A stretch of 42,760 nt of DNA from Thermoplasmata archaeon (GTDB lineage Archaea > Thermoplasmatota > Thermoplasmata > Methanomassiliicoccales > Methanomethylophilaceae): assembly GCA_015063285.1 (NCBI GenBank), contig SUST01000011.1, positions 1 through 42,760 of the forward strand. Reading direction: 5' to 3'. Below, in pieces: positions 2,999 through 25,049 of this stretch (its first letter is position 1; every line of letters begins with the position of its first letter). A program made the translations under genes and the position numbers. The notes below the pieces were generated by a model. That model saw only the letters and a list, made by a program, of their open reading frames with translations, was not told the origin of the DNA and ran no database searches.

Positions 2999-3280
2999 AT
3001 GAACATGGAGGTCACACAATCCGCAGGTTTCAACTCTGTTAGTGAAAACACCAGCGGACCTTTGGTTCCTATTTCATTTCTTAAGAGTGGGGAATCGGGG
3101 AAGGTTGTGAAGATCTCGGGTAAAAAGGAAGTCAAAAGCTTCCTTGAGGGTCTGGGATTCATTCCTGGAACGCCTGTTAAGATAGTTAATCGTGACAACT
3201 CTGGCCGCATACTTGAAATAAGAGGTTCGAGAATAGCTATCGATGACGGTATGGCCATGAAGATCATGGTCACCCAATGA
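2999..3280 (+). CDS. feoA: FeoA domain protein, N-terminally extended
   Basis: This is an SH3-like FeoA protein that supports Fe(II) import by FeoB. Residues 25-93 match FeoA, with the LGFIPGTPVKIVNRD turn and the DDGMAMKIMV C-terminal strand. The first 20 or so residues are a Ser/Asn-rich extension that its neighbour lacks. An alternative ATG at 3005 would remove two residues. It is the first of two feoA genes before feoB, 9 bp apart, in one operon. It is much more divergent than the two 73-residue FeoA proteins in the window, so it may have a distinct regulatory role; that is inference. Confidence 0.9.
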   Translation: MNMEVTQSAGFNSVSENTSGPLVPISFLKSGESGKVVKISGKKEVKSFLEGLGFIPGTPVKIVNRDNSGRILEIRGSRIAIDDGMAMKIMVTQ

Positions 3281-3289
3281 GAGATCGCC

Positions 3290-3511
3290 ATGAAGACCCT
3301 CAGTGACATCCCTATAGGCGGAACTGCCAAAGTAAAGAAGCTTTACGGGGAAGGAGCTGTAAGAAGACATATTATGGATATGGGCATCACCAAGGGCGTA
3401 AGTATCGAAATAAGAAAAGTTGCCCCTTTGGGAGATCCCATCGAAATAACTGTGCGCGGGTACCAACTCACGCTCAGGAAAGCCGATGCCGAGCTCATCG
3501 AAGTCGAGTGA
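3290..3511 (+). CDS. feoA: FeoA, ferrous iron transport accessory protein
   Basis: This 73-residue cytoplasmic SH3-like protein has the usual size of FeoA. Conserved features are HIMDMGITKGVSIEIRKVAP followed by GDPIEITVRGYQLTLRK. FeoA interacts with FeoB in known systems. It lies 19 bp before feoB and is a close paralogue of the FeoA at 7481, with which it shares the whole central motif. Confidence 0.95.
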   Translation: MKTLSDIPIGGTAKVKKLYGEGAVRRHIMDMGITKGVSIEIRKVAPLGDPIEITVRGYQLTLRKADAELIEVE

Positions 3512-3530
3512 CTTTGAATGAGGGCTCTGA

Positions 3531-5672
3531 ATGACACTGACTATCGCACTGGCGGGTAATCCAAACTGCGGAAAAACCACACTTTTCAATGCATTGACAG
3601 GGTCATCTCAGCGCGTAGGAAACTGGCCTGGCGTAACGATTGACAGAAAAGTCGGAAAGATCAGAGGGACCGATGCTGAGTTGGTTGACCTTCCCGGGAT
3701 ATACTCTCTATCGCCATATTCACCCGAGGAAATTGTTTCCAGGGATTATATCGTCCATGAAAAACCGGATGCCATCATAAACATCGTCGATGCAACAAAC
3801 CTTGAGAGGAACCTGTACCTGACCATGCAGATCATAGACATGGGCATACCGATGGTATTGGCCATGAACATGATGGATGAAGTTGAGAAACGGGGCGACC
3901 ACATCGACGTCAGCTTCATCTCAGATTCGATCGGCATTCCAGTCATCCCTATCTCCGCAGCAAAGAAAGATAACATCGACAAACTTGTTGAGAAGATTAT
4001 CGAAGTTGCTGAAAAGAGAGAGTGTCCCCCGGAAATCGTATATGACGTTTCTGTGGAAAAAACAGTGAAGGCTGCTGAAAAAGCACTCGAAGGCAAGGTC
4101 CCGACAGAGAACATCAGATTCTATGCGTTCAAATTGATCGACGGGGACCCTCTTGTCAATAAGGAATTCCCAGGCGCCAGAGACGAGATCAAAGAGGAAA
4201 TATGTGCTCTGGAGAAAGAGCATGATGACCTAGCGGATTCCATAATTGCAGACTGCAGATACACCAAAATCGTAGAGATCGTCCACAAGGCGATTACCAA
4301 AGCTCCGCGCGACGAACGCGGAACCCTATCCGACCGTATCGACAGAATAGTCACTCATAAAATCGTCGGCATCCCAATTTTCATTGTCATTATCGCTATC
4401 GTTTATTTCGTAGCACTCTACGACGGTCCGCTGATGACATCACCAGGTGCTTGGGCCACCGGGGCGTTGAATGACTGGTTCGACTCTTTCAGGGAGGATG
4501 TCGCCGACTGGTGTCTGAGCAATGACGTGAGTGAGATTACCACAGGCATACTGACGGACGGAATAATGGCCGGAGTAGGTGCTGTCCTTGGATTCTTGCC
4601 ACAAATCGCTATCATGTTCACGTGCCTGATCATCTTGGAAGAAATCGGGTATATGGCCCGTGTCGCTTTCGTCATGGACCGTATCTTCAGATACTTCAAC
4701 CTCTCAGGAAAATCCTTCATCCCTCTTCTTGTTGGTACCGGCTGCGGAGTACCCGGCGTTATGTCCTCTAGGACCATAGAGAGCGAATCGGACCGCCGCA
4801 TCACCGCTATGACGGTGACATTTATGCCCTGCAGCGCTAAACTCCCCATCATCTCAGCAATCGCAGGAGCCATGGCCGGGAACATGTGGGTGGCAGTCTA
4901 CGCATACTTCATGGGGATCATGCTTGTGATCCTGTCCGGTATCGTCCTGAAGAAATTCCAAAAACTGTCCGGCAATCCAGCACCGTTCATAATGGAACTC
5001 CCGCCATATCATGTACCTAAGCTGTACGGTGTCCTCAAAGGAATCTTTGACAGATGCTGGTCATTCGTGAAGAAGGCATTCACTGTTGTCCTCCTTGCAT
5101 CCGTTATCGTCTGGTTCCTCTGCCACTTCAACTTCACATTCGATTATCTGGATTCGGACGAATTGATGAATGAATCCATCCTCGCCACCATTGGAAACTA
5201 CCTTGCATACATCTTCGTTCCGCTAGGATGGGGTGACAACTGGGAGCTCGCAGCATCCACCGTAACCGGACTGATGGCAAAGGAGAACATTGTCGCCACA
5301 TTAGGAGTGCTTCTTGTAGGCGATTCTGAGGCTTCAGTAACATCCGTGTCAGAGGCGCTTGCGGCCATGCTCGGAAACCAAGCGGCAATCCTCTCATTCT
5401 TCAGCTTCAACATATTCTGCGCACCGTGCGTTGCCGCGATAGGCGCCATACACAGAGAACTCGGTACATGGAAGGCCACCGGACTTGGAGTGCTCTATCA
5501 ATGCACGGTTTCTTATCTTATCGCATTGATTGTCTTTGTGGTATACGGAACGATTCTCGGGGTGGACATCGACTGGTTCTCATACGTATTGGCCGTATTG
5601 AGTGTTGTCGCCCTGGTCTACGTTTTGTTGTCCAAGGATCCGTTCAGACAGAGAAGGGAGGTCGATGCATGA
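3531..5672 (+). CDS. feoB: FeoB ferrous iron transporter, copy 1
   Basis: This polytopic inner-membrane Fe(II) transporter has a cytosolic GTPase domain. The 713 residues begin with G1 GNPNCGKTT (9-17), then the switch region NWPGVTIDRK, G3 DLPG (53-56) and G4 NMMD (113-116). The membrane part carries the two Gate-type cysteine motifs, GTGCGVPGVMSSRTI and FCAPCVAAIGAIHRELG. The start ATG follows a GAGGG. The stop overlaps the next gene by ATGA. A stretch at 4653-4723 is identical to feoB copy 2, although the surrounding DNA is diverged. Confidence 0.97.
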   Translation: MTLTIALAGNPNCGKTTLFNALTGSSQRVGNWPGVTIDRKVGKIRGTDAELVDLPGIYSLSPYSPEEIVSRDYIVHEKPDAIINIVDATNLERNLYLTMQIIDMGIPMVLAMNMMDEVEKRGDHIDVSFISDSIGIPVIPISAAKKDNIDKLVEKIIEVAEKRECPPEIVYDVSVEKTVKAAEKALEGKVPTENIRFYAFKLIDGDPLVNKEFPGARDEIKEEICALEKEHDDLADSIIADCRYTKIVEIVHKAITKAPRDERGTLSDRIDRIVTHKIVGIPIFIVIIAIVYFVALYDGPLMTSPGAWATGALNDWFDSFREDVADWCLSNDVSEITTGILTDGIMAGVGAVLGFLPQIAIMFTCLIILEEIGYMARVAFVMDRIFRYFNLSGKSFIPLLVGTGCGVPGVMSSRTIESESDRRITAMTVTFMPCSAKLPIISAIAGAMAGNMWVAVYAYFMGIMLVILSGIVLKKFQKLSGNPAPFIMELPPYHVPKLYGVLKGIFDRCWSFVKKAFTVVLLASVIVWFLCHFNFTFDYLDSDELMNESILATIGNYLAYIFVPLGWGDNWELAASTVTGLMAKENIVATLGVLLVGDSEASVTSVSEALAAMLGNQAAILSFFSFNIFCAPCVAAIGAIHRELGTWKATGLGVLYQCTVSYLIALIVFVVYGTILGVDIDWFSYVLAVLSVVALVYVLLSKDPFRQRREVDA

Positions 5673-5851
5673 ACGTATATGAATTGATCATAATCGCAGT
5701 GGTAGCGTTATTGGTCATCAACGCCATAGTTTTCTTGATCAGAAGCAGACGCAGGGGAAAGAACGGTTGCAGTTGTGAAAGGTCATGCAGCAACTGCACT
5801 GGATGTTCCGGACCCAATGTGACTATAGAGGATGATTCCAAGAAGGAATGA
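5669..5851 (+). CDS. FeoB-associated Cys-rich membrane protein
   Basis: This 60-residue protein has one N-terminal membrane helix (residues 4-26), a basic stop-transfer RSRRRGK, then a cysteine cluster CSCERSCSNCTGCSG and an acidic tail. It overlaps feoB by ATGA and has an AGGGAGG ribosome site inside feoB. The layout matches the small Cys-rich proteins known downstream of feoB in many bacteria, thought to act in iron transfer (FeoC-like). A parallel copy follows the second feoB. The metal-handling role is inference. Confidence 0.85.
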   Translation: MNVYELIIIAVVALLVINAIVFLIRSRRRGKNGCSCERSCSNCTGCSGPNVTIEDDSKKE

Positions 5852-5881
5852 TCGATTCTTTATCTTTGCCAGTTTCCTGCA

Positions 5882-5900
5882 TTGAGGAAACCCTCGGTTT
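5882..5900 (+). repeat. Left 19-bp inverted repeat of the tnpB element
   Basis: TTGAGGAAACCCTCGGTTT is the exact reverse complement of the sequence at 7255-7273. It contains a small internal hairpin (AAACC/GGTTT). Confidence 0.8.
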
Positions 5901-6062
5901 AGTGTCAGAATTGATGACTCAACAGAATTATCTAGGAACCTTAGACACAGAACCGAAAGTGGAAGGGAGATGTCTGGGTAGGGGTGTTTTGGATTGCACT
6001 TTCGGGGACCCCTGTCTTAACTTAATATAGTAACCATACGGTGTGTTCCATGGAGGCATTCC

Positions 6063-7217
6063 ATGGACAGGACGATGAGGACCTTGGTCGTAAGATTATA
6101 TCCCAACAGAGAGCAGGAGCGCCAGCTTAACGATTGTCTGGATGTCTGCCATGATCTGTACAACAACCTCCTTGAACACTGCATACAGATTCATAAGGAC
6201 GGCGGGAAGCATCCGTCCGCCTATGATTTGGAGAAACTTCTGCCTGACATGAAGAAGGCAGATCCGAAGCTGAAGATGGTGTACTCCCAGGTATTATACG
6301 ATGTCTGTGTCCGTTTGAGCAGGGCGTTCGACGGATTCTTCAGGCGTGTGAAGGAGGATCCCGAGCATGCGGGCTTCCCGAGATTCAAGTCATGGAAGAG
6401 GTACGATTCGTTCACCTATCCGCAATTTGGATTCAAGCTGTCTTCGAATCATATCAGGCTGAGTCCATGGAAGACGGATGTGAGGATCAGGGGATACCGC
6501 AAGATCGGCGGCACCGTGAAGACGTGCACTGTCATCAGAAAAGGTGCGGGGCCCAAATACCGCTGGGAGGCTGCGCTGACGTTCGAGATGGATTCCAAGG
6601 GTGGCGGAACGGCCGTACAGACCCTCATCGAACCGACCAGGCCCATAGGCATAGACCTCGGTCTGAAGAACATGGTGGTGACATCGGATGGTGCAACCTA
6701 TCCCAACAGGAAGAACTACATACAAGCGGAAAGACAGGTATCGAAGATCCTCAGGAAGATGTCCAAATACGAGAAAGGATCCAAAGAGAGGGAGAGATAC
6801 CGCCAGAGGCTGTTCCATGCCTTCGAGAGACTGAACAACGTCAACAAGGGATATATCCACGAGGTCGTGAACGGCCTTCTGGAGAATCATGATATGATAG
6901 TGACGGAGGACATCCGCATCAAGGACCTTACCGACAAGAGCAGATCCAAAGGGATGAGGAAGTCCTTCAGGGATGCGAACTGGGGGAAGTTCATCTTCAC
7001 ACTTGGATACAAAGCGGCAGAGGCTGGTATCCAGATGGTGAAGGTGGATCCGGCGTACACGTCCCAACAGTGTTCCAAGTGCGGATTGCTTGTGCCCAAG
7101 GACCTCTCGGTCCGCAGGCATGTCTGTCCGCATTGCGGTCTGGATGTCGACCGCGACTAGAACGCTGCCTGCAACATCCTCACCTTGGGCATGCAAGGTG
7201 TTCAGTCTCCGAGCTGA
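6063..7217 (+). CDS. tnpB: TnpB RNA-guided nuclease with in-frame amber codon
   Basis: TnpB is the RNA-guided DNA endonuclease of IS200/IS605 elements. The RuvC-like residues are visible: D198 in GIDLG, E282 in VTEDI and D365 in DRD. A four-cysteine zinc finger (C337, C340, C355, C358) lies in between. Codon 366 is TAG (7158-7160), directly after the catalytic DRD. The same frame continues with NAACNIL, the conserved end of the family, to TGA at 7215-7217. Reading TAG as pyrrolysine therefore restores a normal 384-residue protein; stopping there removes the last 18 residues. The start ATG follows GGAGG by 7 nt. A downstream guide-RNA scaffold probably overlaps the 3' end and the right repeat. 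Confidence 0.9.
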
Positions 7218-7254
7218 TGGATGGAGAGCAGAGGGATCTGCGATCACATAGAGG

Positions 7255-7273
7255 AAACCGAGGGTTTCCTCAA
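7255..7273 (-). repeat. Right 19-bp inverted repeat of the tnpB element
   Basis: AAACCGAGGGTTTCCTCAA is the reverse complement of 5882-5900. Together with the preceding GAGG it forms an 8-bp hairpin, the kind of structure found at the right end of IS605 elements and at the 3' end of TnpB guide RNAs. Confidence 0.75.
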
Positions 7274-7307
7274 AGCCCAGTTACCGATAGTCAATTTTTG
7301 TAAATTC

Positions 7308-7480: not shown

Positions 7481-7702
7481 ATGAGCACATTGAAAGATAC
7501 TGCCGTTGGTTCCACTGTCAAAGTGAAGAAACTTAACGGCGATGGCGTCCTGAAGAGGCACATCATGGATATGGGCATCACCAAAGGTGTCGAGATCTAT
7601 GTTCGCAAAGTGGCCCCGCTCGGAGATCCCGTTGAGATCACTGTTCGCGGTTATGAACTCAGCCTCAGGAAGGAATATGCGGAGCTGATAGAGCTCGAAT
7701 GA
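7481..7702 (+). CDS. feoA: FeoA, ferrous iron transport accessory protein
   Basis: This 73-residue SH3-like FeoA is a close paralogue of the product at 3290, sharing HIMDMGITKGV and KVAPLGDP-EITVRGYEL. It is the first gene of the second Feo operon and lies 29 bp before the preferred feoB start. Its role is to support FeoB-mediated Fe(II) uptake in the cytoplasm. Confidence 0.95.
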   Translation: MSTLKDTAVGSTVKVKKLNGDGVLKRHIMDMGITKGVEIYVRKVAPLGDPVEITVRGYELSLRKEYAELIELE

Positions 7703-7731
7703 GCATCTATCGCAACTTTTGGAGGAATGAA

Positions 7732-9873
7732 ATGAGTTTTACAATAGCATTAGCCGGAAACCCGAATTGCGGTAAGACCACCCTGTTCAACGCTTTGACG
7801 GGTGCTTCTCAGCGTGTCGGTAACTGGCCTGGTGTAACCATAGACAAGAAAGTGGGAAAGATCAAAGGGACCGATGCGCACTTGGTCGACCTTCCCGGAA
7901 TCTACTCGCTCTCCCCCTATTCGCCCGAGGAGATCGTGTCAAGGAACTTCATAGTCAATGAGAACCCTGATGCGATCATCAACATCGTGGATGCCACCAA
8001 CCTTGAGAGGAACCTGTTCCTGACACTACAGCTGATCGACATGGACAGACCTCTGGTCATCGCACTGAACATGATGGACGAGATCGAGAAGCAGAATGAC
8101 AGTATCGATGTGGAAAAACTATCAGAAGGGTTGGGGGTACCCGTCGTTCCTATTTCCGCCAAGGAGAAGAGGAACATAGACGAGCTCATAAACAAAGTCG
8201 AAGAAGCGGCATCACAAAAGAAAGAGCCGAAGATTATCAGATATGATGACAGGATAGAACATGCCGTATCTGAGGCCACAAAGGCCCTCCAATCCAAGAT
8301 TCCAGTAGATTGCTCGAGATTCTACGCTTTCAAGCTGATCGAAGGGGATTCTGCGATCGAGGAACTCGCTCCAGGATCGAGGCAGTCCATATCATCTGTG
8401 ATAGAGGACCTTGAAAAGTCGTTTGACGACGATGCCGATTCAATCATTGCAGACAGCAGATATACCAAGATCTCGGAGATCGTAGGTAGTGCCTATACGA
8501 AAGCTCCGAGGGACGAGAGGGGAACACTGTCCGACCGTATCGACAGGATAGTTACCAACAGGATCCTCGGTCTGCCAATCTTCATAGGAGTCATCACTTT
8601 AGTGTATTTCATCGCCATGTACGACGGTGACCTTGGAACATCACCTGGTGCCTGGGCTACAGGTTGGTTGAATGACTTCATTGGTGAAACAGTCATACCT
8701 GCAGTAGAGGAATGGTGCGTAGACAACGGAGTGAGCGATGCCCTTACTGGATTGCTATGTGACGGTATCCTATCCGGAGTTGGAGCCGTTATCGGTTTCC
8801 TCCCCCAGATGATAGTCCTTTTCACATGTCTCGTCATCCTTGAGGAGATTGGTTACATGGCCCGTGTCGCTTTCGTCATGGACCGTATCTTCAGATACTT
8901 CAACCTCTCAGGAAAATCCTTCATCCCCCTTATCGTCAGTACCGGATGTGGTGTCCCCGGAGTCATGTCCACAAGGACCATTGAATCCGAGGCTGACCGC
9001 CGTATCACGGCAATGACGTGTACTTTCATGCCCTGCGGTGCCAAACTGCCTGTCATCTCCGCTATCGCCGGAGCACTTGCAGGAAGTGTCTGGGTGGCAG
9101 TTTTCGCCTATGTCATGGGTATCGTACTGGTCATCATCTCCGGTATCATCCTGAGGAAATTCAAGAAAATGGCAGGAACTCCCGCACCGTTCATCATGGA
9201 GCTGCCTCCCTACCACGCACCTGGATTCGTAAGCAGCGTCAAAACAATCTTTGACAGAACCTGGGCATTCGTCAAGAAGGCAGGTACGATCATTCTGTTA
9301 GCAATGATTCTCGTCTGGTTCCTCAAATCGTTCGACTGGTCGCTTAATCTGCTCGCTGAGGACGAGATGGACAACTCCATCTTGGCAGGAATCGGAGGGG
9401 TGCTGAACTACCTGTTCCTTCCCTTAGGATGGGGTGAAAACTGGGAACTGCCGGCCGCATCCCTTACCGGACTCATTGCCAAGGAAGACCTCATAGGAAC
9501 ACTTGAACAGCTCATCGCAGAACCCTTCGATCTGGAGATCTCAGAAGCACTGGCGGCAATGCTGTCGCCAGCAGCCATCCTGTCATTCTTCACATTCAAC
9601 ATGTTCTGTGCACCTTGCTTCGCAGCCATGGGTGCCATACACAGGGAACTCGGCGATTGGAAATCCACTGGATTCGCATTCCTCTATCAGTGCTTGCTCG
9701 CATACTTCGTATCGGTCATCGTCTACGTCGTGTACTCTGCAATCAACGGGGATATCGGTAACATCGAGATGTATTCCATAATCTTCGCTGTCATCGACTT
9801 TGTGATCCTTGTCTATTTCTTGGTTGTCAAGGATCCGCTAAAGCCGTTCCGCAAGAAAGAGGTGGCAGAATGA
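7732..9873 (+). CDS. feoB: FeoB ferrous iron transporter, copy 2
   Basis: This second Fe(II) transporter is 713 residues, exactly the length of copy 1 when started at 7732. That ATG is preferred over the one at 7699 because TTTTGGAGGAATGAA gives a good ribosome site and the protein then begins MSFTIALAGNPNCGKTT like its paralogue. G3 DLPG and G4 NMMD are present. The membrane motifs STGCGVPGVMSTRTI and FCAPCFAAMGAIHRELG keep the cysteines. It overlaps the downstream Cys-rich gene by ATGA. The two FeoBs may differ in affinity or metal; the sequence does not show which. Confidence 0.97.
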   Translation: MSFTIALAGNPNCGKTTLFNALTGASQRVGNWPGVTIDKKVGKIKGTDAHLVDLPGIYSLSPYSPEEIVSRNFIVNENPDAIINIVDATNLERNLFLTLQLIDMDRPLVIALNMMDEIEKQNDSIDVEKLSEGLGVPVVPISAKEKRNIDELINKVEEAASQKKEPKIIRYDDRIEHAVSEATKALQSKIPVDCSRFYAFKLIEGDSAIEELAPGSRQSISSVIEDLEKSFDDDADSIIADSRYTKISEIVGSAYTKAPRDERGTLSDRIDRIVTNRILGLPIFIGVITLVYFIAMYDGDLGTSPGAWATGWLNDFIGETVIPAVEEWCVDNGVSDALTGLLCDGILSGVGAVIGFLPQMIVLFTCLVILEEIGYMARVAFVMDRIFRYFNLSGKSFIPLIVSTGCGVPGVMSTRTIESEADRRITAMTCTFMPCGAKLPVISAIAGALAGSVWVAVFAYVMGIVLVIISGIILRKFKKMAGTPAPFIMELPPYHAPGFVSSVKTIFDRTWAFVKKAGTIILLAMILVWFLKSFDWSLNLLAEDEMDNSILAGIGGVLNYLFLPLGWGENWELPAASLTGLIAKEDLIGTLEQLIAEPFDLEISEALAAMLSPAAILSFFTFNMFCAPCFAAMGAIHRELGDWKSTGFAFLYQCLLAYFVSVIVYVVYSAINGDIGNIEMYSIIFAVIDFVILVYFLVVKDPLKPFRKKEVAE

Positions 9874-11653: not shown

Positions 11654-13708
11654 ATGAAGGTAGGTATAGACCTCGGAACAACATACTCTGCAGTAGCTAG
11701 ATATGATAAAGCGTCGAACAAGCCGATCATGCTTAACAACGCATTCGGTAAGGAGATCACACCGTCCGTCATCTGTTTCTTGGATGACGGCGACATCCTT
11801 GTCGGCGAAGACGCAAAGGACATGCAGTCGAACGGAACAGGCGTCAACGCAGCAGCCTTCAAGCGCAACATGGGTGACGGATCTATTGTCGTCAGCTTCA
11901 ACGGAAAGGACTACACTGCTGAAGACCTCTCAGCGATGCTTCTCAAGCACCTCATAGAGGATGCAGAGAAAGCAGCAGGGGAGAAGATAGAGGAGGCAGT
12001 CATCACCGTACCTGCCTACTTCGAAGACGCTCAGAGAATAGCGACCAAGCGTGCGGGAGAATCATGCGGAATCAAGGTTCCCAAGATCATCAACGAACCC
12101 ACCGCAGCAGCTATCTCCTACGGTTACAAACATTCGGCTGATAAGACCCTCTTAGTTTACGACCTCGGAGGAGGGACCTTCGATGTCACCATCGTCAGAA
12201 TCACTAAGGGAACCATCGAGGTCATCGGTACCAACGGTAACCACATACTCGGAGGAAAGGATTGGGATGCAGCGATAGTCAAATTCGTCTGTGACAGATT
12301 CGCCAACGAGTTCGATGTCGACCCCAGAGACGACCTGCCTACCAAGAACGAACTCATCGTGGCTGCAGAAGGCTACAAGAAGACACTCTCTATCGCAGAG
12401 AGCGTCACCATCCCTGTGAACTACGAGGGCTGCAGCGAGAAATACACTCTCACAAGGGACGAGTTCGAGTCGATGACCGAACACCTGATGAACGCCACCA
12501 AGGATGTTTGTGAGGAACTGATCGACTCCCTTGGCATGCAGTGGACGGATATCGACGAGATCCTCCTGTGCGGGGGATCGACCAGGATGCCCGGTGTCGC
12601 CAAGTTCCTCAAGAGTTTCACCGGACGCGAGGTCGTGACCCACGGGGACACTGACCTGGCAGTTGCAAAGGGAGCGGCCATCACAGCAGAGCTCTACAGC
12701 AGCAACGCCACCGGAATGAGGGCCACGATGCAGGTCACGGATGTCACTGCACACAGCCTCGGTGCGCTGTCCGTCAGCCAGGACGGAAAGAAATACGTAA
12801 ACGAGATAATGATCAAGAGGAACTCCAAGGTCCCCAGCACCTGCAAGAAGCAATTCTCCATCAAACCCGGCAACATGACCGACAAGATCGAAGTCTATAC
12901 ACTGCAGGGAGAATCCAGGGTCCCCTTAGACTGTAACGTCCTTGCAAAGGTCGTCATCTCAGGATTCTACAACGACGGAAAAGGAGTCGTCTTCGATATA
13001 GAATATAACTATGATGAGAATGGAATCGTGAACATCAGGGCGTTCCAGGGCGAGGAGCCTTTGGACGTGAAGTCTGAGCCCGTCCCCGACGACATCAGAT
13101 GGATGGGAGGAAACCCCCGCGACAAGCCCTCAGATGTCAAGATCGCCAAGAACATCGCCATCTGCGTCGACCTGTCAAGGAGTATGGAGGGAGAGCCTAT
13201 AGAAGCCGCAAAGGATTCGATCCGCAGCTTCGTCCGCACCCTTTCAGAACCCAACACAAGATTCGCTCTGATCGGTTTCGGTGACAAAATCAAGGTCGTC
13301 CAGGAGCTCACTGAAGACATGGATGTCCTAATCAACTCCATCGAGGACCTTAAGGTCAAGATGCTCGGAAGAGGAACCGACGCAAGCCCACTGGACACAG
13401 CAAGGGCAGTCATCGGAGGTCAGCCCGGAGTAGGAATCATCGTTGTACTGACTGACGGAATCTGGGGTAAGAGGGACAATGCGGTGGACCAGGCGCTCGG
13501 ATGCAGAGCAGACGGAATCACCATCATCGCAGTCGGACTCGGAGAGGCCGACACATCGTTCCTCAGACAGATCGCCACGGTCGACGACGGAGCCTTGTTC
13601 ACCACCATAGACAAGCTCGGTGACACCTTCGGTACCATCGCGACCGCGATCTCATCTGGTAACATGGGACTTGCAGCCCGCGACAATATGGGTCTTGCAT
13701 CTCGCTGA
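11654..13708 (+). CDS. Hsp70 (DnaK-like) fused to a vWA domain
   Basis: Residues 1-350 are an Hsp70 nucleotide-binding domain: GIDLGTTYSAV (4-14), YDLGGGTFDVT (169-179) and LLCGGSTRMPGV (304-315). Residues 355-475 resemble the beta-sandwich substrate domain. The helical lid is absent and replaced by a vWA domain (about 500-665) with an intact MIDAS: D506-S508-S510, T575 and D601. vWA domains bind partners through a metal ion. The C-terminus ends in a short repeated NMGLAARDNMGLASR. It is the first gene of a five-gene operon, 10 bp before the next. I infer an ATP-driven chaperone that recruits its partner through the vWA domain. Confidence 0.9.
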   Translation: MKVGIDLGTTYSAVARYDKASNKPIMLNNAFGKEITPSVICFLDDGDILVGEDAKDMQSNGTGVNAAAFKRNMGDGSIVVSFNGKDYTAEDLSAMLLKHLIEDAEKAAGEKIEEAVITVPAYFEDAQRIATKRAGESCGIKVPKIINEPTAAAISYGYKHSADKTLLVYDLGGGTFDVTIVRITKGTIEVIGTNGNHILGGKDWDAAIVKFVCDRFANEFDVDPRDDLPTKNELIVAAEGYKKTLSIAESVTIPVNYEGCSEKYTLTRDEFESMTEHLMNATKDVCEELIDSLGMQWTDIDEILLCGGSTRMPGVAKFLKSFTGREVVTHGDTDLAVAKGAAITAELYSSNATGMRATMQVTDVTAHSLGALSVSQDGKKYVNEIMIKRNSKVPSTCKKQFSIKPGNMTDKIEVYTLQGESRVPLDCNVLAKVVISGFYNDGKGVVFDIEYNYDENGIVNIRAFQGEEPLDVKSEPVPDDIRWMGGNPRDKPSDVKIAKNIAICVDLSRSMEGEPIEAAKDSIRSFVRTLSEPNTRFALIGFGDKIKVVQELTEDMDVLINSIEDLKVKMLGRGTDASPLDTARAVIGGQPGVGIIVVLTDGIWGKRDNAVDQALGCRADGITIIAVGLGEADTSFLRQIATVDDGALFTTIDKLGDTFGTIATAISSGNMGLAARDNMGLASR

Positions 13709-17973: not shown

Positions 17974-18833
17974 ACGAGAGATTCAGCAATTTCCTGTCCG
18001 GGAAATTCCAGCAGACCGACCCCCGCCAAGGGGTCAGTGTGAGGGTACCGGACGATTCGGAGATTGAAACACAAAGGACGGAACAGCCCAAGAACGATGA
18101 GGTCTCTGTTGCTGTCCCGAAGGACTTCAGCGAGGAATTGAAGGATGACATCGCCTCACTGAAGGCACAGATCGAGGAACTCAAAGCGGAGATATCCGCG
18201 ATGAGGGCGACTTCTCCGGAAGTCCCGGACCTTTCGTCATTCGTGACATCCAGGGAGATGATCAAGAGCCTTACCAACGCGATCGACAGACAGAACGTCG
18301 AGATCACAAACAAGGCTCTTTTGAGCTCCATGGAACAGATTGCGATAATGAGAGAGGACTTCTTCAAACTCTGTGCAGGAATGGAAAAGAAGATCGACAC
18401 CATGTCCGCCAAGGACGTACTGGCCTCGTTCCAGGCGTATGAAGTGGATATGGAGAATATCCTAACTGATGGAGGGGTGTACATCGGACACTTCCCGTAT
18501 GAGACACTGAATACGATCCATCAGCGCATCGTGGAGGTAGTACCGACAAACGACCAGGAGAAGAACGGAAAGATAGCCGAGAGGCTGTCTGACGGTTACA
18601 AACTTGGTAATAGGGTCCTTCTGAAAGAGAAGGTCACGGTTTACAAGTACGTCGAGAACATGGTGCAGGAAACGCCTACTGAGGAGCCTAAGCGGCCCGA
18701 ACCGGTACCTGAGGCCAAACCAGCCGAAGAGACCAAGGCAGAAGAAGCTCCAGCAAAACCCGTTAAGAAAACATCTTCGAGAAAGAGAAACTCTACGAAA
18801 AAGAACACCAACGTTAAGGAGGAAAAAGAATGA
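17970..18833 (+). CDS. GrpE-like nucleotide exchange factor
   Basis: The 287-residue protein has a coiled coil (about 52-82) and helices to about residue 150. A segment at 150-228 then resembles the GrpE beta head: GVYIGHFPYETLNTIHQRI, then LSDGYKLGNRVLLKEKVTVY, matching GrpE's G-Y-x-L-x-x-R-V-L-x-x-A-x-V-x-V ending. The tail (232-287) is a Lys/Glu/Pro-rich linker unlike normal GrpE. It sits directly before an Hsp70 gene with an ATGA overlap. I infer that it exchanges nucleotide on one or both Hsp70s of the operon. The overall similarity to GrpE is remote. Confidence 0.7.
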   Translation: MNERFSNFLSGKFQQTDPRQGVSVRVPDDSEIETQRTEQPKNDEVSVAVPKDFSEELKDDIASLKAQIEELKAEISAMRATSPEVPDLSSFVTSREMIKSLTNAIDRQNVEITNKALLSSMEQIAIMREDFFKLCAGMEKKIDTMSAKDVLASFQAYEVDMENILTDGGVYIGHFPYETLNTIHQRIVEVVPTNDQEKNGKIAERLSDGYKLGNRVLLKEKVTVYKYVENMVQETPTEEPKRPEPVPEAKPAEETKAEEAPAKPVKKTSSRKRNSTKKNTNVKEEKE

Positions 18834-20401
18834 CAGAGTATAGCATCGGTATTGACCTCGGTACGACCTACTCGTGCCTTGCATACATTGATGAGGATGG
18901 GGACCCGGTAGTTGAGAAGAACTTCGAGCAGGAAGACACAACACCTTCAGTCATCCTCTTCAACGAGAACGGAGAGATCATCGTAGGATCCCCTGCGAAG
19001 GACATGTCCGTCATGTACCCCCCAGAGAGGGTCATCACATCGATCAAGAGACAGATGGGAACTGACTACACCGTCAACATCGACGGCGAGACATACAACC
19101 CCATCATGCTCTCCGCAGTGATCCTCAGGAAGATGATCAACGACTTCAACGAGAACCACGGATGCGAGGTCAAGAAGGCCGTCATCACCTGTCCCGCATA
19201 CTTCGGACAGAACGAGAGGGATGCCACAAAGACCGCAGGAACCATCGCGGGACTCGAGGACGTTACAGTCATCAACGAACCCACCGCAGCAGCCATCTCC
19301 TTCGGATTCGGTAACGCTGACGGAGGAAAGAAGAGAGTGCTCGTATACGACCTTGGAGGAGGAACATTTGATGTGACCATCCTCGAGATCGACGGCACAT
19401 CGTTTACTGCAGTCGCCACCGACGGAGAGAGGTTCCTCGGAGGAAAGGACTGGGATGCAGTCATCTCCAACATCATCAAGCAGAAGATCTCCGAGGAGAC
19501 CGGAATCGACAAGGACGCTCTCGACGAGAACGAGGATGTCAAGCAGGCCCTGGTCAACGACTCAGAGACCATCAAGAAGAGGCTTTCCACCGCGGAATCC
19601 ACCAAGGGAACCCTGACAGTCGATGGCCAGAAGGTCGTCTTCACCGTCACCAGGGAGGACTTCGAGACTGCTTCCAAGGGACTCATCCAGACCACCATCG
19701 AGATCATCGACCGTGTCCTCGAGTCCAAGAACTACACCATGGCAGACATCGATGAGGTCGTCCTCGTTGGAGGATCATCCAGGATGCCCCAGGTAAAGAA
19801 CAGCATTGCGGAGAAATACCCTGCAGCGAAGATCAACATCTATGACCCTGACCAGTCCGTTGCTAAGGGAGCAGCCATCTTCTCCAAGTCCAACATGGTC
19901 ATGCCCGATGCCACCAACACTGCAGCGGCAGGAGAGGCGGCGGCCGTCGAGGGAGCCATCAACGTCCACAACGTCCTGTCCAAGACCTTCGGAATCAAGG
20001 CAGTCTACGAGGACGGATCCGAGATGATCTCCAACATCATCTTCAGGAACGAGGTCCTGCCCATCGAAGCAGTCAAGACCTACTACCCCGTCGATGACGG
20101 TCAGAACACCATCATGGTCGAGATCTATGAGGACGCAGCTTTCAACGACGACCTCGGAAAGAAGACCGAGATCATCGAGGGATCGCCTGTCGGAAACTTT
20201 ATGATGGAGCTTCCCATGGACGTTACCAAGAACACTCCGATCACCGTCAAGTTCACAGCGACCAACGAGGGTATCCTCATCGCATCCGTGGACTGCATGG
20301 AGCAGCACTCCGATTACCAGATCGAGAATGAGATGACCATGTCCGCTGACGAGATCAACAAGTCCATGGGACTCATGGACAAGGTCACCAACGCAAACTG
20401 A
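18830..20401 (+). CDS. Hsp70 (DnaK-like) without helical lid
   Basis: This 523-residue Hsp70 has GIDLGTTYSCL at residues 7-17, YDLGGGTFDVT and LVGGSSRMPQV in the nucleotide-binding domain (1-365). A beta substrate domain (about 385-495) includes FGIKAVYEDGSEM and KNTPITVKFTATNEG. The chain ends soon after with only the first turn of the lid, whereas canonical DnaK has 600-640 residues. The ribosome site AAGGAGG is strong and the ATG overlaps the GrpE-like gene. It is the last gene of the operon before a clear hairpin. It is distinct from the vWA-fused Hsp70, so the two may act as a pair. Confidence 0.9.
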   Translation: MTEYSIGIDLGTTYSCLAYIDEDGDPVVEKNFEQEDTTPSVILFNENGEIIVGSPAKDMSVMYPPERVITSIKRQMGTDYTVNIDGETYNPIMLSAVILRKMINDFNENHGCEVKKAVITCPAYFGQNERDATKTAGTIAGLEDVTVINEPTAAAISFGFGNADGGKKRVLVYDLGGGTFDVTILEIDGTSFTAVATDGERFLGGKDWDAVISNIIKQKISEETGIDKDALDENEDVKQALVNDSETIKKRLSTAESTKGTLTVDGQKVVFTVTREDFETASKGLIQTTIEIIDRVLESKNYTMADIDEVVLVGGSSRMPQVKNSIAEKYPAAKINIYDPDQSVAKGAAIFSKSNMVMPDATNTAAAGEAAAVEGAINVHNVLSKTFGIKAVYEDGSEMISNIIFRNEVLPIEAVKTYYPVDDGQNTIMVEIYEDAAFNDDLGKKTEIIEGSPVGNFMMELPMDVTKNTPITVKFTATNEGILIASVDCMEQHSDYQIENEMTMSADEINKSMGLMDKVTNAN

Positions 20402-21076: not shown

Positions 21077-21664
21077 ATGTTCGTATACATATTGGGCGGA
21101 TTCCTAGGAAGTGGAAAGACCACCCTTCTGATGAAACTAGCTTCCATGTACACAAAGCGTGGACTAAAAACCGCTCTCCTGGTCAACGAATCCGGAGAGA
21201 TCGGTGTGGATGGCGCCACCCTCAAAGCTGAGGGGTATGATGCGATAGAACTCCCTGACGGATGCATCTGCTGCTCCCTTTCCGGAACCCTGCAGAGTGC
21301 ACTGACGAATATCGAGGAAGATATTGACCCCGATATCATCATCATAGAGCCTACCGGATTAGCGCTTCCCCATAAGGTGAAGGAACTGGTTCGCAGCTCC
21401 GGGATCGATTCTGAAGGGACATACATCATAGGAATCTCAGACGTAGAGAGATTCGAGCTCCTTATAAGCAAGAAGGAGGAATTCATAAAGAGACAGATGA
21501 TGGGTGCGGATTTCGTGCTCATCAACAAGAAGGATCTGGCCAAACCGGGTCAGGTGGAATCCATCACCGGATGGTTCAAGAAAGAGTTCCCGGACAAAAA
21601 AGTCATGGTGATCTCTGCCAAGACCGGAGAGAATCTGGATGAAGTTTACGAGATGATGAAATGA
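21077..21664 (+). CDS. G3E (CobW/P47K) GTPase, metallochaperone type
   Basis: The 195-residue protein has GGFLGSGKTT (7-16), the metal-binding CICC motif (C63, C65, C66), IEPTGLALP and NKKDL, all typical of G3E GTPases that insert metals such as Ni, Zn or Co. It lacks the C-terminal domain of full CobW proteins. The ATG at 21077 is chosen because the family starts right at the P-loop strand; an upstream ATG at 20993 would add 28 unlike residues. It overlaps the next gene, which encodes a His/Cys-rich protein, so the pair probably handles one metal. Confidence 0.9.
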   Translation: MFVYILGGFLGSGKTTLLMKLASMYTKRGLKTALLVNESGEIGVDGATLKAEGYDAIELPDGCICCSLSGTLQSALTNIEEDIDPDIIIIEPTGLALPHKVKELVRSSGIDSEGTYIIGISDVERFELLISKKEEFIKRQMMGADFVLINKKDLAKPGQVESITGWFKKEFPDKKVMVISAKTGENLDEVYEMMK

Positions 21665-22599
21665 GCGGAGAAAAGACATCTTTGGAAGAAGCCGGCGGAG
21701 TTGCCACCGGAGTCACCGGAAGGATCGGATGCTGGAATGCCGATTCGGAAGCCAGGCTCTGCAGTGCGATGCTTGTCGTCGGCAAATGGGTACAGTCCGA
21801 AGCAGGACAACTGCTCGGCCATATCAAAGCCGCCGTCACTCTGGATGACGGTTCAGGAGTCACACTCAACCTTACAGACTTGAGCAACGGAGTCGAGAAG
21901 CATGGGGAACTCCCCCCTCAGGACAAGGTCAACTTCACATTCATGTCCGCTGTTCTCGATGTTGATGAGCACGAGCTCCATCACAAGATGCATGATGCGA
22001 TCGATGACAGCGGCCTCCTGTATGAGATCGATGAGCACGAATGCCACTGCCATCACCACCACGACCATGGTGATGAATGCCACTGCCACGATCATGATCA
22101 TCACCATGAGCATGAGCACGGAAAGACAGTAATCGTCAACAACTACTACGGCGATTACTACGCATGCTGTTGCAAATGCTGCTGCGATTGCTGCGAGGAT
22201 GATGATGAGTGCTGCTGTGAACACGAGCACCACCATCACCACGACCATGATGAGGAATGCCACTGCCACGAACATGAGCATGAGCACCATCACCATGATC
22301 ACGACCACGAGCATGACGAGTGCTGCAGCGGCCATGAACACCACCATGATCACTGCTGCAAGAGCGAGCACATCCACACCAAGTCAGGCACCGTGATCGT
22401 CAACAACTACTACGGGGACTTCCACGAGTGTAAATGCAAGTGCTGTTGCGATGATGATGAGTGCTGCTGTGAACACGAGCACCACCATCACCACGACCAT
22501 GATGAGGAATGCCACTGCCACGAACATGAGCATGAGCACCATCACCATGATCACGACCACGAGCATGACGAATGCTGCTGCGGTCACCACCACGACTGA
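21661..22599 (+). CDS. Extremely His/Cys-rich metal-binding protein
   Basis: The 312-residue protein starts with an unrecognised domain (1-118) containing GCWNADSEARLCSAM and VTLDDGSGVTLNLTDLSNG. The rest is almost entirely His, Cys, Asp and Glu. Two tandem units of 84 residues each start with VIVNNYYGD and contain CCC, HEHHHHHDHD and HEHEHEHHHHDHDHEHDE blocks. Such density can hold many Ni, Zn, Co or Cu ions. It overlaps the G3E GTPase gene by ATGA, so it may be that enzyme's metal store or donor. Which metal is bound cannot be read from the sequence. Confidence 0.85.
   Translation: MSGEKTSLEEAGGVATGVTGRIGCWNADSEARLCSAMLVVGKWVQSEAGQLLGHIKAAVTLDDGSGVTLNLTDLSNGVEKHGELPPQDKVNFTFMSAVLDVDEHELHHKMHDAIDDSGLLYEIDEHECHCHHHHDHGDECHCHDHDHHHEHEHGKTVIVNNYYGDYYACCCKCCCDCCEDDDECCCEHEHHHHHDHDEECHCHEHEHEHHHHDHDHEHDECCSGHEHHHDHCCKSEHIHTKSGTVIVNNYYGDFHECKCKCCCDDDECCCEHEHHHHHDHDEECHCHEHEHEHHHHDHDHEHDECCCGHHHD
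22198..22571 (+). repeat. Two 122-bp identical repeats inside the His-rich gene
   Basis: Positions 22198-22319 and 22450-22571 are identical over 122 nt, at an offset of 252 bp (84 codons). The first difference is a silent GAG/GAA at 22320/22572. The flanking VIVNNYYGD codons also repeat. Identity at third positions implies a recent in-frame duplication or ongoing conversion. Confidence 0.9.
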
Positions 22600-22775: not shown

Positions 22776-25049
22776 ATGGTAATCATCGTTGTACTCATTG
22801 AGATAATCGCTGCCGGTGCGATTATCGCTCTGGAAAACCAAGATGAACATGAGCACACGAAGGATATATCCAAAGAACTTTCTCTGATCGCCAGAGTGAA
22901 CACAGATGGCTCGGGGATATATCTATCTGAACAATATGATGCAAGTGATTTTCTAACCGTTTCCTCCAGCGGAAAAGTAACTTTCAATAAGGAAACTTGG
23001 GGCGGAAAAGTATTTGGAACGCCTGGGGCAAGTACAATTCAACATGTTCAACTTATGGGAATTGTACAGAATGAGCTCGGGATGAAGTTTGAAAAATACA
23101 ACGAAGGAGGGAAAAAATCCTCTGATACTGTGTATTATATCGACAACATCCAGAACTACACCCATGCTATAAACAACAGAAGCATTCTAGATGGAGGCAT
23201 CCTCTGGGAGCCTCAATATCACTACATCACCTCCAGCGATTATTACGATGAAATGGTTACAACAAATATCTTATTCCCTGGCCATACCTGCTGTCTCATT
23301 ACAGGCTACCAGGATTTCCTAGACAACCACTCTGATGAAACCATTAGATTCCTCGCGGCCTATATCAAAGCAGTAGATTTCGTAAATGAAGCGAAAGAAG
23401 ACCCCAGCGGTGAAAAGTACAAGCAACTGATTCAGATATGCAAAGATAACATCCCTGGTTTAACTGAGGAAGTCATTATAGAGGCTCTTCACGGGGTTGT
23501 GTACACATACAGCGACAAAAAAGGTACTTCAAACCTTTCCGCTCTTGAGTCTGATATCGCATCCTTGACCGAGAACCTGACCAATTTGGGAGGTATCAAA
23601 GTTCAGATTTCAGAACTTGGTTTCGACAGCTATGAGGAATTTGCCAAGGCATTCATAGATGACCAATACCTGACTAAAGCTTTGAAATACAAATCTTACT
23701 CCGGAACCAAATCGACGGTGAATGTCTCGGCGATCGATGGAGATATTCACCAGATAGCAGTTCAGGTTGCTAGATCACTCGGATACTTCGGAGAATACGG
23801 ACTTGATGTTAACCTAAGGGCACTAGGAAACGGCGGAGCGGTAGCACAAGATATTCTCAGCGGTCAGTCCGACCTAGGATTCATGGGAGCACCTCCGATC
23901 ACCAGCGCTACAGTGAATGGAAAGAAAATTATCGCTCATGACACGAGCGAGGTTGTCGTTGTAAAAGATGTTTCGCTAATATCGAGAGTCAACACTGATG
24001 GTTCTGGAATCTACATTGCTTCCGAGTACAATGCGGAGGATTTCCTTACCGTATCTGCTGAAGGAAAGATCACATTCAAACCTGAAGCATGGGGAGGGAA
24101 GGTCTTCGGTACTCCTGGAGCAAGTACCATCCAACATGTTCAGCTTATGGAAATAGTACAGGATTCCCTTGGATTGAAATTCGAAAAATTCAACTCAGAA
24201 AGTACGAAGTCCTCAGATACAGTCTATTTCGTGGATAATATCCAGAACTACACTCATGCTATCAACAACAAATCCATTTTAGATGGAGGCATCCTTTGGG
24301 AACCTCAGTATCACTACATAGTGGATAGCGAATACTTCGACGAAATGATCACTACCAACCAATTGTTCCCTGGTCACACTTGCTGTTTGATTGCCGGATA
24401 TCAGAATTATCTCGACAGCCATTCGGATGAAACGGTCAGATTCCTGAGTGCCTTCGTAGAAGCTGTTGACTACATCAACGAAGCTAAATCAGATAAATCT
24501 GGAGAAAAATACGCAGAACTAATCAAGATATGCAAAGATAACATCCCTGGCCTAACCGAAGATGTAATCAAAGAAGCTCTTGACGGAGTTGTTTATACTT
24601 ATAGTGATACCGCAGGTACTGCTGATCTAGGCGAATTAAAGGTTGACATTGCAACCTTGGCTGAAAACCTGACAAAATTAGGCGGAATCAAAGTAACCTT
24701 AAAGGAACTCGGTTTCAAAACCTACAATGAATTGGCTGATGCCTTTGTCGACAACAGTTACCTGAAAAAAGCTATGGAAAAGAAAGCCTACACTGGAAAT
24801 GCAACATCAACGATCAATATTGCAGCCATTGACGGTGACATTCATCAAATTGCTGTACAGGTAGCCAAGTCTCTAGGAATCTTCGAGAAATATGGCCTCA
24901 ATGTTAACATAAAGGCATTAGCCAATGGTGGAGCTGTGGCCCAGGATCTTCTCAGTGGTCAGTCCGACCTAGGATTCATGGGGGCACCGCCAATTACCAG
25001 CGCCACCATCAACGGTAAGAAGATTATGTTGAAAGAGGTGGAGATCTGA
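22776..25049 (+). CDS. Duplicated ABC substrate-binding protein, order C-N-C-N
   Basis: This is a membrane-anchored binding protein of the nitrate/sulfonate/taurine (SsuA/TauA-like) type. A hydrophobic segment (2-19) is followed by two similar units of about 365 residues. In each, the part that is normally C-terminal (NTDGSGIY, GKVFGTPGASTIQHVQLM, GGILWEPQYHYI) comes first. The normally N-terminal part (AIDGDIHQIAVQVA, GGAVAQD, GQSDLGFMGAPPITSA) comes after. Lobes are about 34-298, 313-385, 398-661 and 677-757. The ATG has a poor ribosome site; an ATT at 22761 would add IRTKQ and give a better signal peptide. It overlaps the permease start by one base. Confidence 0.85.
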   Translation: MVIIVVLIEIIAAGAIIALENQDEHEHTKDISKELSLIARVNTDGSGIYLSEQYDASDFLTVSSSGKVTFNKETWGGKVFGTPGASTIQHVQLMGIVQNELGMKFEKYNEGGKKSSDTVYYIDNIQNYTHAINNRSILDGGILWEPQYHYITSSDYYDEMVTTNILFPGHTCCLITGYQDFLDNHSDETIRFLAAYIKAVDFVNEAKEDPSGEKYKQLIQICKDNIPGLTEEVIIEALHGVVYTYSDKKGTSNLSALESDIASLTENLTNLGGIKVQISELGFDSYEEFAKAFIDDQYLTKALKYKSYSGTKSTVNVSAIDGDIHQIAVQVARSLGYFGEYGLDVNLRALGNGGAVAQDILSGQSDLGFMGAPPITSATVNGKKIIAHDTSEVVVVKDVSLISRVNTDGSGIYIASEYNAEDFLTVSAEGKITFKPEAWGGKVFGTPGASTIQHVQLMEIVQDSLGLKFEKFNSESTKSSDTVYFVDNIQNYTHAINNKSILDGGILWEPQYHYIVDSEYFDEMITTNQLFPGHTCCLIAGYQNYLDSHSDETVRFLSAFVEAVDYINEAKSDKSGEKYAELIKICKDNIPGLTEDVIKEALDGVVYTYSDTAGTADLGELKVDIATLAENLTKLGGIKVTLKELGFKTYNELADAFVDNSYLKKAMEKKAYTGNATSTINIAAIDGDIHQIAVQVAKSLGIFEKYGLNVNIKALANGGAVAQDLLSGQSDLGFMGAPPITSATINGKKIMLKEVEI

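What the first reader, a model, noticed from the sequence alone, without database searches (positions are those of the whole stretch)
6063..7217. Amber codon directly after the catalytic DRD of TnpB
TAG at 7158-7160 splits the conserved DRD-x-NAAxNIL end of TnpB. The downstream frame keeps NAACNIL and a TGA stop, so the gene is intact if TAG is decoded. In a pyrrolysine-decoding archaeon this would place Pyl next to a RuvC catalytic aspartate, or make TnpB activity depend on amber decoding. The codon interrupts an exact family motif, so it is not a natural end.
Basis: partly seen in the sequence, partly recalled or inferred. Interest (0 to 1): 0.72.

Follow-up and report, generated by a model that had tools for sequence, protein, structure and literature searches.

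The report
TnpB nuclease gene with pyrrolysine codon
A family of jumping-gene nucleases (TnpB) in gut-type methanogens carries an amber "stop" codon right after its catalytic aspartate; the evidence indicates that the cell reads it as the 22nd amino acid, pyrrolysine, so these DNA-cutting proteins can only be made in full in a pyrrolysine-using host.

Summary
TAG at window 7158-7160 lies between DRD and NAACNIL of an otherwise intact tnpB. It is not decay. Three diverged copies in this genome, one in each of two other species (64-65% protein identity) and two partial copies in a fourth species all carry DRD-TAG-NAACNIL. Purifying selection is clear (dN/dS about 0.1-0.3). Among TnpBs of the genus, in-frame internal stops are TAG 14, TAA 0, TGA 0. 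The genome has pylS (cut by a contig end)-pylB-pylC-pylD and an mttB with in-frame TAG; TAG ends only about 2% of ORFs of 150 aa or more. Published scanning of ISDra2 TnpB shows depletion of stops before residue 376; this one corresponds to residue 362. So the best reading is decoding as pyrrolysine to give full-length TnpB.

A special role of Pyl at the active site, or gating by amber decoding, is untested and not required. The codon lies where the gene overlaps its 3'-end guide RNA (omegaRNA). There the codon is frozen to the third base in sense-codon TnpB families too, down to about 63% identity, and UAG can pair with a conserved downstream GUUCAGUC. Pyl-containing transposases and Cas1 are known; I found no report of a Pyl TnpB.

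The parts
5879..5902 (+). left end of the element, GCATTGAGGAAACCCTCGGTTT (palindromic core AAACC-CTC-GGTTT; inverted match to the right end)
   Evidence: copies in the same genome start to match here and their flanks differ before it
6063..7217 (+). tnpB, 384 codons when TAG is read as sense; HTH_OrfB, OrfB_IS605 and Cas12f1-like TNB domains
   Evidence: translation, Pfam, PDB sequence and fold matches to TnpB
6654..6656 (+). RuvC-I Asp198 (GIDLGL)
   Evidence: D198 nearly invariant in alignment; lost (G) in the G012 copy
6906..6908 (+). RuvC-II Glu282
   Evidence: invariant
7071..7136 (+). four-Cys zinc ribbon (CxxC...CxxC)
   Evidence: C337, C340, C355, C358 invariant
7155..7157 (+). RuvC-III catalytic Asp365 (equivalent of ISDra2 D361)
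   Evidence: invariant; alignment to 8h1j; D361 catalytic in PMC10097598
7158..7160 (+). in-frame amber codon 366, inferred to be decoded as pyrrolysine; conserved in 7 of 7 copies
7161..7181 (+). NAACNIL, last RuvC helix, kept in frame after TAG
   Evidence: predicted helix 364-377
7215..7217 (+). TGA, the real end of the frame
7135..7277 (+). probable omegaRNA (reRNA) scaffold overlapping the end of tnpB and the right end; guide would start at 7278, so TAG is at -120 to -118
   Evidence: nucleotide conservation across 7 copies and folding
7155..7163 (+). GACUAGAAC, 5' strand of a candidate pseudoknot stem (A of UAG bulged)
   Evidence: pairs with 7200-7207 in 7 of 7 copies; duplex z -2.3 to -4.1; no compensatory change, so unproven
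7200..7207 (+). GUUCAGUC, 3' strand of the candidate stem; invariant even in L010, where it is out of frame
7182..7199 (+). hairpin ACCUU...AAGGU just downstream, with one compensatory change (AU to GC in L010)
7251..7277 (+). right end: hairpin GAGGAAACC-GAG-GGTTTCCTC and end of the element
   Evidence: flanks of the copies differ after 7277

Best explanation
This is a TnpB-only insertion element of a pyrrolysine-decoding methanogen. UAG at codon 366 is read by tRNA-Pyl, so the ribosome continues through NAACNIL to TGA and makes a full-length RNA-guided nuclease with Pyl directly after catalytic Asp365. Termination at UAG would give a 365-residue product without the last RuvC helix, which should not cut DNA. 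The codon persists because it lies in the stretch shared by the protein end and the omegaRNA. There the nucleotides are held by RNA function, and routine Pyl decoding makes UAG tolerable to the protein. Shown: the sequence, its conservation, purifying selection, the pyl genes and the scarcity of TAG as a stop. Inferred: decoding as Pyl, loss of activity on termination, and the RNA overlap as the reason for retention.
For: Seven copies in four species keep DRD-TAG-NAACNIL. dN/dS before TAG is 0.12-0.28 at dS 0.25-1.5; in the nine codons after TAG the few differences are synonymous except one Thr/Ala. Internal in-frame stops in genus TnpBs are TAG 14, TAA 0, TGA 0 (after leaving out stops before the start codon and natural ends). 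ORF ends of 150 aa or more in 443 kb: TGA 257, TAA 32, TAG 6, two of those six being tnpB and one mttB. pylS (partial)-pylB-pylC-pylD are in this genome; tRNA-Pyl(CTA) stands before pylS in relatives, including the hosts of two TAG copies, G012 and G028. mttB has the expected in-frame TAG. Stops before residue 376 of ISDra2 TnpB are depleted in a mutational scan (PMC11844463); the residue here aligns with 362. The predicted helix 364-377 would be cut. RNA part: codon 366 is identical to the third base in all sense-codon TnpB pairs at 63% identity or more; strong pairing of GACUAGAACGC with the downstream strand in the TAG family.
Against: No peptide or RNA data. pylT was not found in this assembly; pylS is cut by the contig end, so the gene next to it may be missing. 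The proposed stem has no compensatory change, and UUG, UCG or UGG would keep the same two pairs, so pairing alone does not explain the A. The G012 copy has lost RuvC-I Asp, so not every TAG copy is an active nuclease. No Y1 TnpA was found in this genome.
Confidence: 0.78

Rival explanations
1. Pyl366 or amber decoding has a function of its own: the Pyl side chain acts at the RuvC site, or the UAG couples nuclease production to Pyl supply and confines the element to Pyl hosts.
For: TAG is invariant in 7 copies although position 366 takes 15 different amino acids among DRD-x-NA matches in the genus, a count that includes chance matches; it immediately follows the catalytic Asp.
Against: Codon 366 is just as conserved in sense-codon TnpB families at the same divergence. 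A second TnpB family keeps a TAG in a variable linker, far from the active site in sequence, and L002 has a further TAG where the window copy has Gln, which suggests general tolerance.
Confidence: 0.15
2. UAG is a true stop; the 365-residue TnpB works as an RNA-guided binder without cleavage, and the downstream sequence is kept only as omegaRNA.
For: The downstream stretch is conserved as RNA; nuclease-dead TnpB relatives that act as repressors are known (own knowledge, not checked here); the G012 copy lacks RuvC-I Asp.
Against: D198, E282 and D365 are kept in four of five full copies. The frame after TAG spells the family motif with synonymous changes. TAG is almost unused as a stop in this genome.
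Confidence: 0.1
3. Pseudogene: TAG is a decay mutation multiplied by transposition.
For: No Y1 transposase was found in this genome; L002 has a second TAG.
Against: Low dN/dS at up to more than one synonymous change per site, no frameshift within the conserved domains, and no internal TAA or TGA in any genus TnpB examined.
Confidence: 0.03

Closest known systems
ISDra2 TnpB (IS200/IS605 TnpB, RNA-guided endonuclease)
   [quoted passage not shown] PMC10097598)
   Different: ISDra2 has Glu at the position of the TAG (DRDENAA). In ISDra2 the RNA part overlapping the RuvC end is dispensable (PMC10097598), whereas here the conserved block reaches codons 359-366
[quoted passage not shown] acetivorans, M. 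mazei)
   Same: Insertion-element genes with conserved UAG in a Pyl-decoding archaeon (PMC2933860, PMC3639795)
   [quoted passage not shown] not named as TnpB in the passages read. There the M. burtonii homologues lack the amber codon
Predicted Pyl-containing proteins of Methanomethylophilus alvi (16 besides methyltransferases, including Cas1)
   Same: A pyrrolysine-decoding methanogen with the same pyl gene order and the same rarity of TAG as stop (1.6% there, PMC4153887)
   Different: Table 7 of that paper lists no TnpB or transposase
[quoted passage not shown]
   Same: A precedent for Pyl that arose without need
   Different: Here the codon is kept across species and overlaps a probable guide RNA

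Membership tests
TnpB (IS200/IS605-type RNA-guided nuclease) | OrfB_IS605 and Cas12f1-like TNB (zinc ribbon) domains | tested here: met
   Pfam PF01385, PF07282, PF12323 above cut-off
TnpB (IS200/IS605-type RNA-guided nuclease) | RuvC catalytic D, E, D | tested here: met
   D198, E282, D365 in the window copy; the G012 copy lacks the first D
TnpB (IS200/IS605-type RNA-guided nuclease) | Structured RNA at the 3' end and right end | tested here: inconclusive
   Conserved nucleotides, fold z -2.7, two pairs with compensatory changes in the tested structure; no RNA data
TnpB (IS200/IS605-type RNA-guided nuclease) | RNA-guided DNA cleavage | not testable with these tools
   needs an assay
IS200/IS605 element with Y1 TnpA | Y1 transposase TnpA | tested here: not met
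   PF01797 not found in this genome; controls rang
Pyrrolysine-containing protein | In-frame UAG with conserved coding frame after it | tested here: met
   7 copies
Pyrrolysine-containing protein | Pyl biosynthesis and PylS in the host | tested here: met
   pylS partial at contig end, pylB, pylC, pylD
Pyrrolysine-containing protein | tRNA-Pyl in the host | tested here: inconclusive
   not found in this assembly; present in G006, G012, G018 and G028
Pyrrolysine-containing protein | Pyl detected in the protein | not testable with these tools
   needs mass spectrometry

The most novel reading that the evidence does not exclude
A TnpB nuclease whose production or catalysis depends on pyrrolysine: Pyl beside the RuvC-III aspartate takes part in, or tunes, DNA cleavage, or UAG decoding meters the nuclease and confines the element to Pyl-using hosts.
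Probability: 0.15. Interest if true: 0.85.

Novelty: new variant of a known kind. Interest (0 to 1): 0.57.

Why it matters
It extends natural pyrrolysine use to RNA-guided nucleases, the ancestors of Cas12, and gives a case where a codon is squeezed between a protein and the guide RNA encoded in the same nucleotides. It also means that ordinary annotation truncates such TnpBs by one helix, and that these elements cannot make the full protein in hosts without Pyl. It makes one question directly testable: whether Pyl is merely tolerated or used.

Tried and rejected
Pseudogene reading: rejected on dN/dS and the absence of internal TAA/TGA. Reading the conservation of TAG as proof of a Pyl-specific role: rejected after the control on sense-codon families. 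Viral carriers: two pattern matches in IMG/VR, neither in a TnpB frame, so chance. Rfam gave nothing for the RNA. A general rule that codon 366 pairs downstream in all TnpBs: not supported; strong only in the TAG family and a few others. A sense-codon member of the same subfamily, to tell the ancestral codon: none found; the next relatives are about 40% identical and have varied codons. A search of Methanosarcina-type genomes for the same motif failed because the tool needs a genome handle.

Full report
Observation. The window carries a tnpB at 6063-7217 with TAG at 7158-7160 between DRD and NAACNIL, and TGA at 7215-7217. Pfam and the PDB place the protein with TnpB. An AlphaFold model (mean pLDDT 84, pTM 0.49, so domain orientation is uncertain) finds TnpB structures first.

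Other copies. The genome (1.79 Mb, 33 contigs) has three full copies, 84-91% identical to each other as proteins, all with DRD-TAG-NAACNIL and a frame that goes on to TGA; a fourth is cut by a contig end before the codon. Two other species of the genus, G028 and G012, have copies at 64-65% protein identity with the same TAG. Contigs of the same length and content appear in the named collection as Thermoplasmata archaeon isolates SIG8 and SIG4. A fourth species, G011, has two partial copies at contig starts. Separate assemblies make a sequencing error very unlikely.

Not decay. Before TAG, dN/dS between copies is 0.12-0.28 while dS runs from 0.25 to about 1.5. After TAG the seven residues NAACNIL are identical, with third-position changes GCT/GCG and GCC/GCA and one ACC/GCC change in the next codon. 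I read all TnpB-like frames of the genus with every stop masked, so that TAA and TGA could show as well as TAG. Leaving out stops before the start codon and natural ends, internal stops are TAG 14, TAA 0, TGA 0; seven of the fourteen are at this site.

Host decoding. Contig C13 starts inside pylS and continues with pylB, pylC, pylD (the last three named from their sequence and order). tRNA-Pyl with anticodon CTA stands before pylS in G006, G012 and G018 and in G028. It was not found in this assembly, where the stretch before pylS is missing. mttB has an in-frame TAG in the context AGM-TAG-TDAK. In 443 kb, ORFs of at least 150 aa end in TGA 257, TAA 32 and TAG 6 times; two of the six are tnpB and one is mttB. 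In the window the only selected ORF of 100 aa or more ending in TAG is this one. The literature gives 1.6% TAG stops for M. alvi and 16 predicted Pyl proteins besides methyltransferases, with Cas1 but no TnpB in Table 7 (PMC4153887). No cis element is needed for Pyl decoding according to the review PMC8211752.

What termination would cost. In ISDra2 TnpB, D361 is catalytic and residues 360-375 belong to RuvC; removal of 376-408 is tolerated (PMC10097598). In a mutational scan, stops were depleted except after residue 376 (PMC11844463). The TAG here aligns with ISDra2 residue 362, and the model shows a helix at 364-377. So termination should abolish cleavage; this is inference from a homologue.

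Why TAG stays. A conserved TAG does not by itself mean a special role. In sense-codon TnpB families of the genus the codon at this place is also identical to the third base in every pair at 63% identity or more (GTC, GTG, CTG, ATA, CAT, AGG), and differs in most pairs below 60%. Synonymous divergence falls towards the 3' end, and nucleotides are conserved from about codon 359 to the right end at 7277, also where L010 is out of frame. The region folds better than shuffled sequence (z -2.7), with compensatory changes in a hairpin just downstream of TAG and in one further stem. This is what an omegaRNA overlapping the gene end predicts; TAG lies at -120 to -118 from the inferred guide start, next to the -116 scaffold border of ISDra2 (PMC10097598). 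GACUAGAAC can pair with GUUCAGUC in all seven copies, with the A of UAG bulged, crossing another helix as a pseudoknot would. The pairing is much stronger than for shuffled downstream sequence in this family (z -2.3 to -4.1) but not in most other TnpB families. It rests on invariant pairs and one G-U wobble, so it is a proposal. UUG, UCG or UGG would keep the same pairs, so the bulged A needs another reason: RNA tertiary contact, chance, or selection on decoding.

General tolerance. Two copies of another TnpB family, in two species and 63% identical, share a TAG in a variable linker far upstream of the omegaRNA (L091, L085). L002 has an added TAG where the window copy has CAG. So TAG seems to be used as an ordinary sense codon in TnpBs of this genus.

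Verdict. The amber codon is very probably decoded as pyrrolysine and the TnpB is functional, at least in some copies; the G012 copy has lost the RuvC-I aspartate. A Pyl-specific or regulatory role remains possible but is not shown. Among known kinds it combines TnpB nucleases with Pyl-containing mobile-element proteins (PMC2933860, PMC3639795). A search of the open-access library for pyrrolysine with TnpB returned one paper, which by its title and term counts is unrelated. From memory and unverified: a 2025 report describes archaea that use TAG as Pyl genome-wide; it was not found in the library, and it may list such genes.

Noticed in passing
L091 (G000 C1, about 234.8-236.2 kb) and L085 (G012 C8): A second TnpB family with a TAG at the same place in two species (IQFE-TAG-ENITC, IQYG-TAG-PDEIC), 200 codons before DRD and outside the omegaRNA.
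   Followed up: partly
L002, in the linker before RuvC-I: The C20 copy has an extra in-frame TAG where the window copy has CAG (Gln).
   Followed up: partly
L011 (G012 C41): TAG copy whose RuvC-I motif reads GIGMGL instead of GIDLGL: possibly a nuclease-dead TnpB.
   Followed up: no
G000 C1:135709-136554 and C1:138737-139168 (in L141): Two further ORFs that end in TAG with long coding-like extensions, one Sel1-like and one repeat protein: more candidate Pyl proteins.
   Followed up: no
window 2999-5851 and 7481-9873: The element sits between two feoA-feoB sets, which look like a tandem duplication.
   Followed up: no
window 22776-25049: One ORF holds two similar halves that look like tandem substrate-binding domains, followed by ABC permease and ATPase genes.
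   Followed up: no
window 11654-13708 and 18830-20401: Two Hsp70-like proteins in a gene cluster; the first seems to carry an added C-terminal VWA-like domain.
   Followed up: no
window 21661-22599: ORF with long His- and Cys-rich repeats next to a CobW/HypB-like GTPase: probable metal-binding protein.
   Followed up: no
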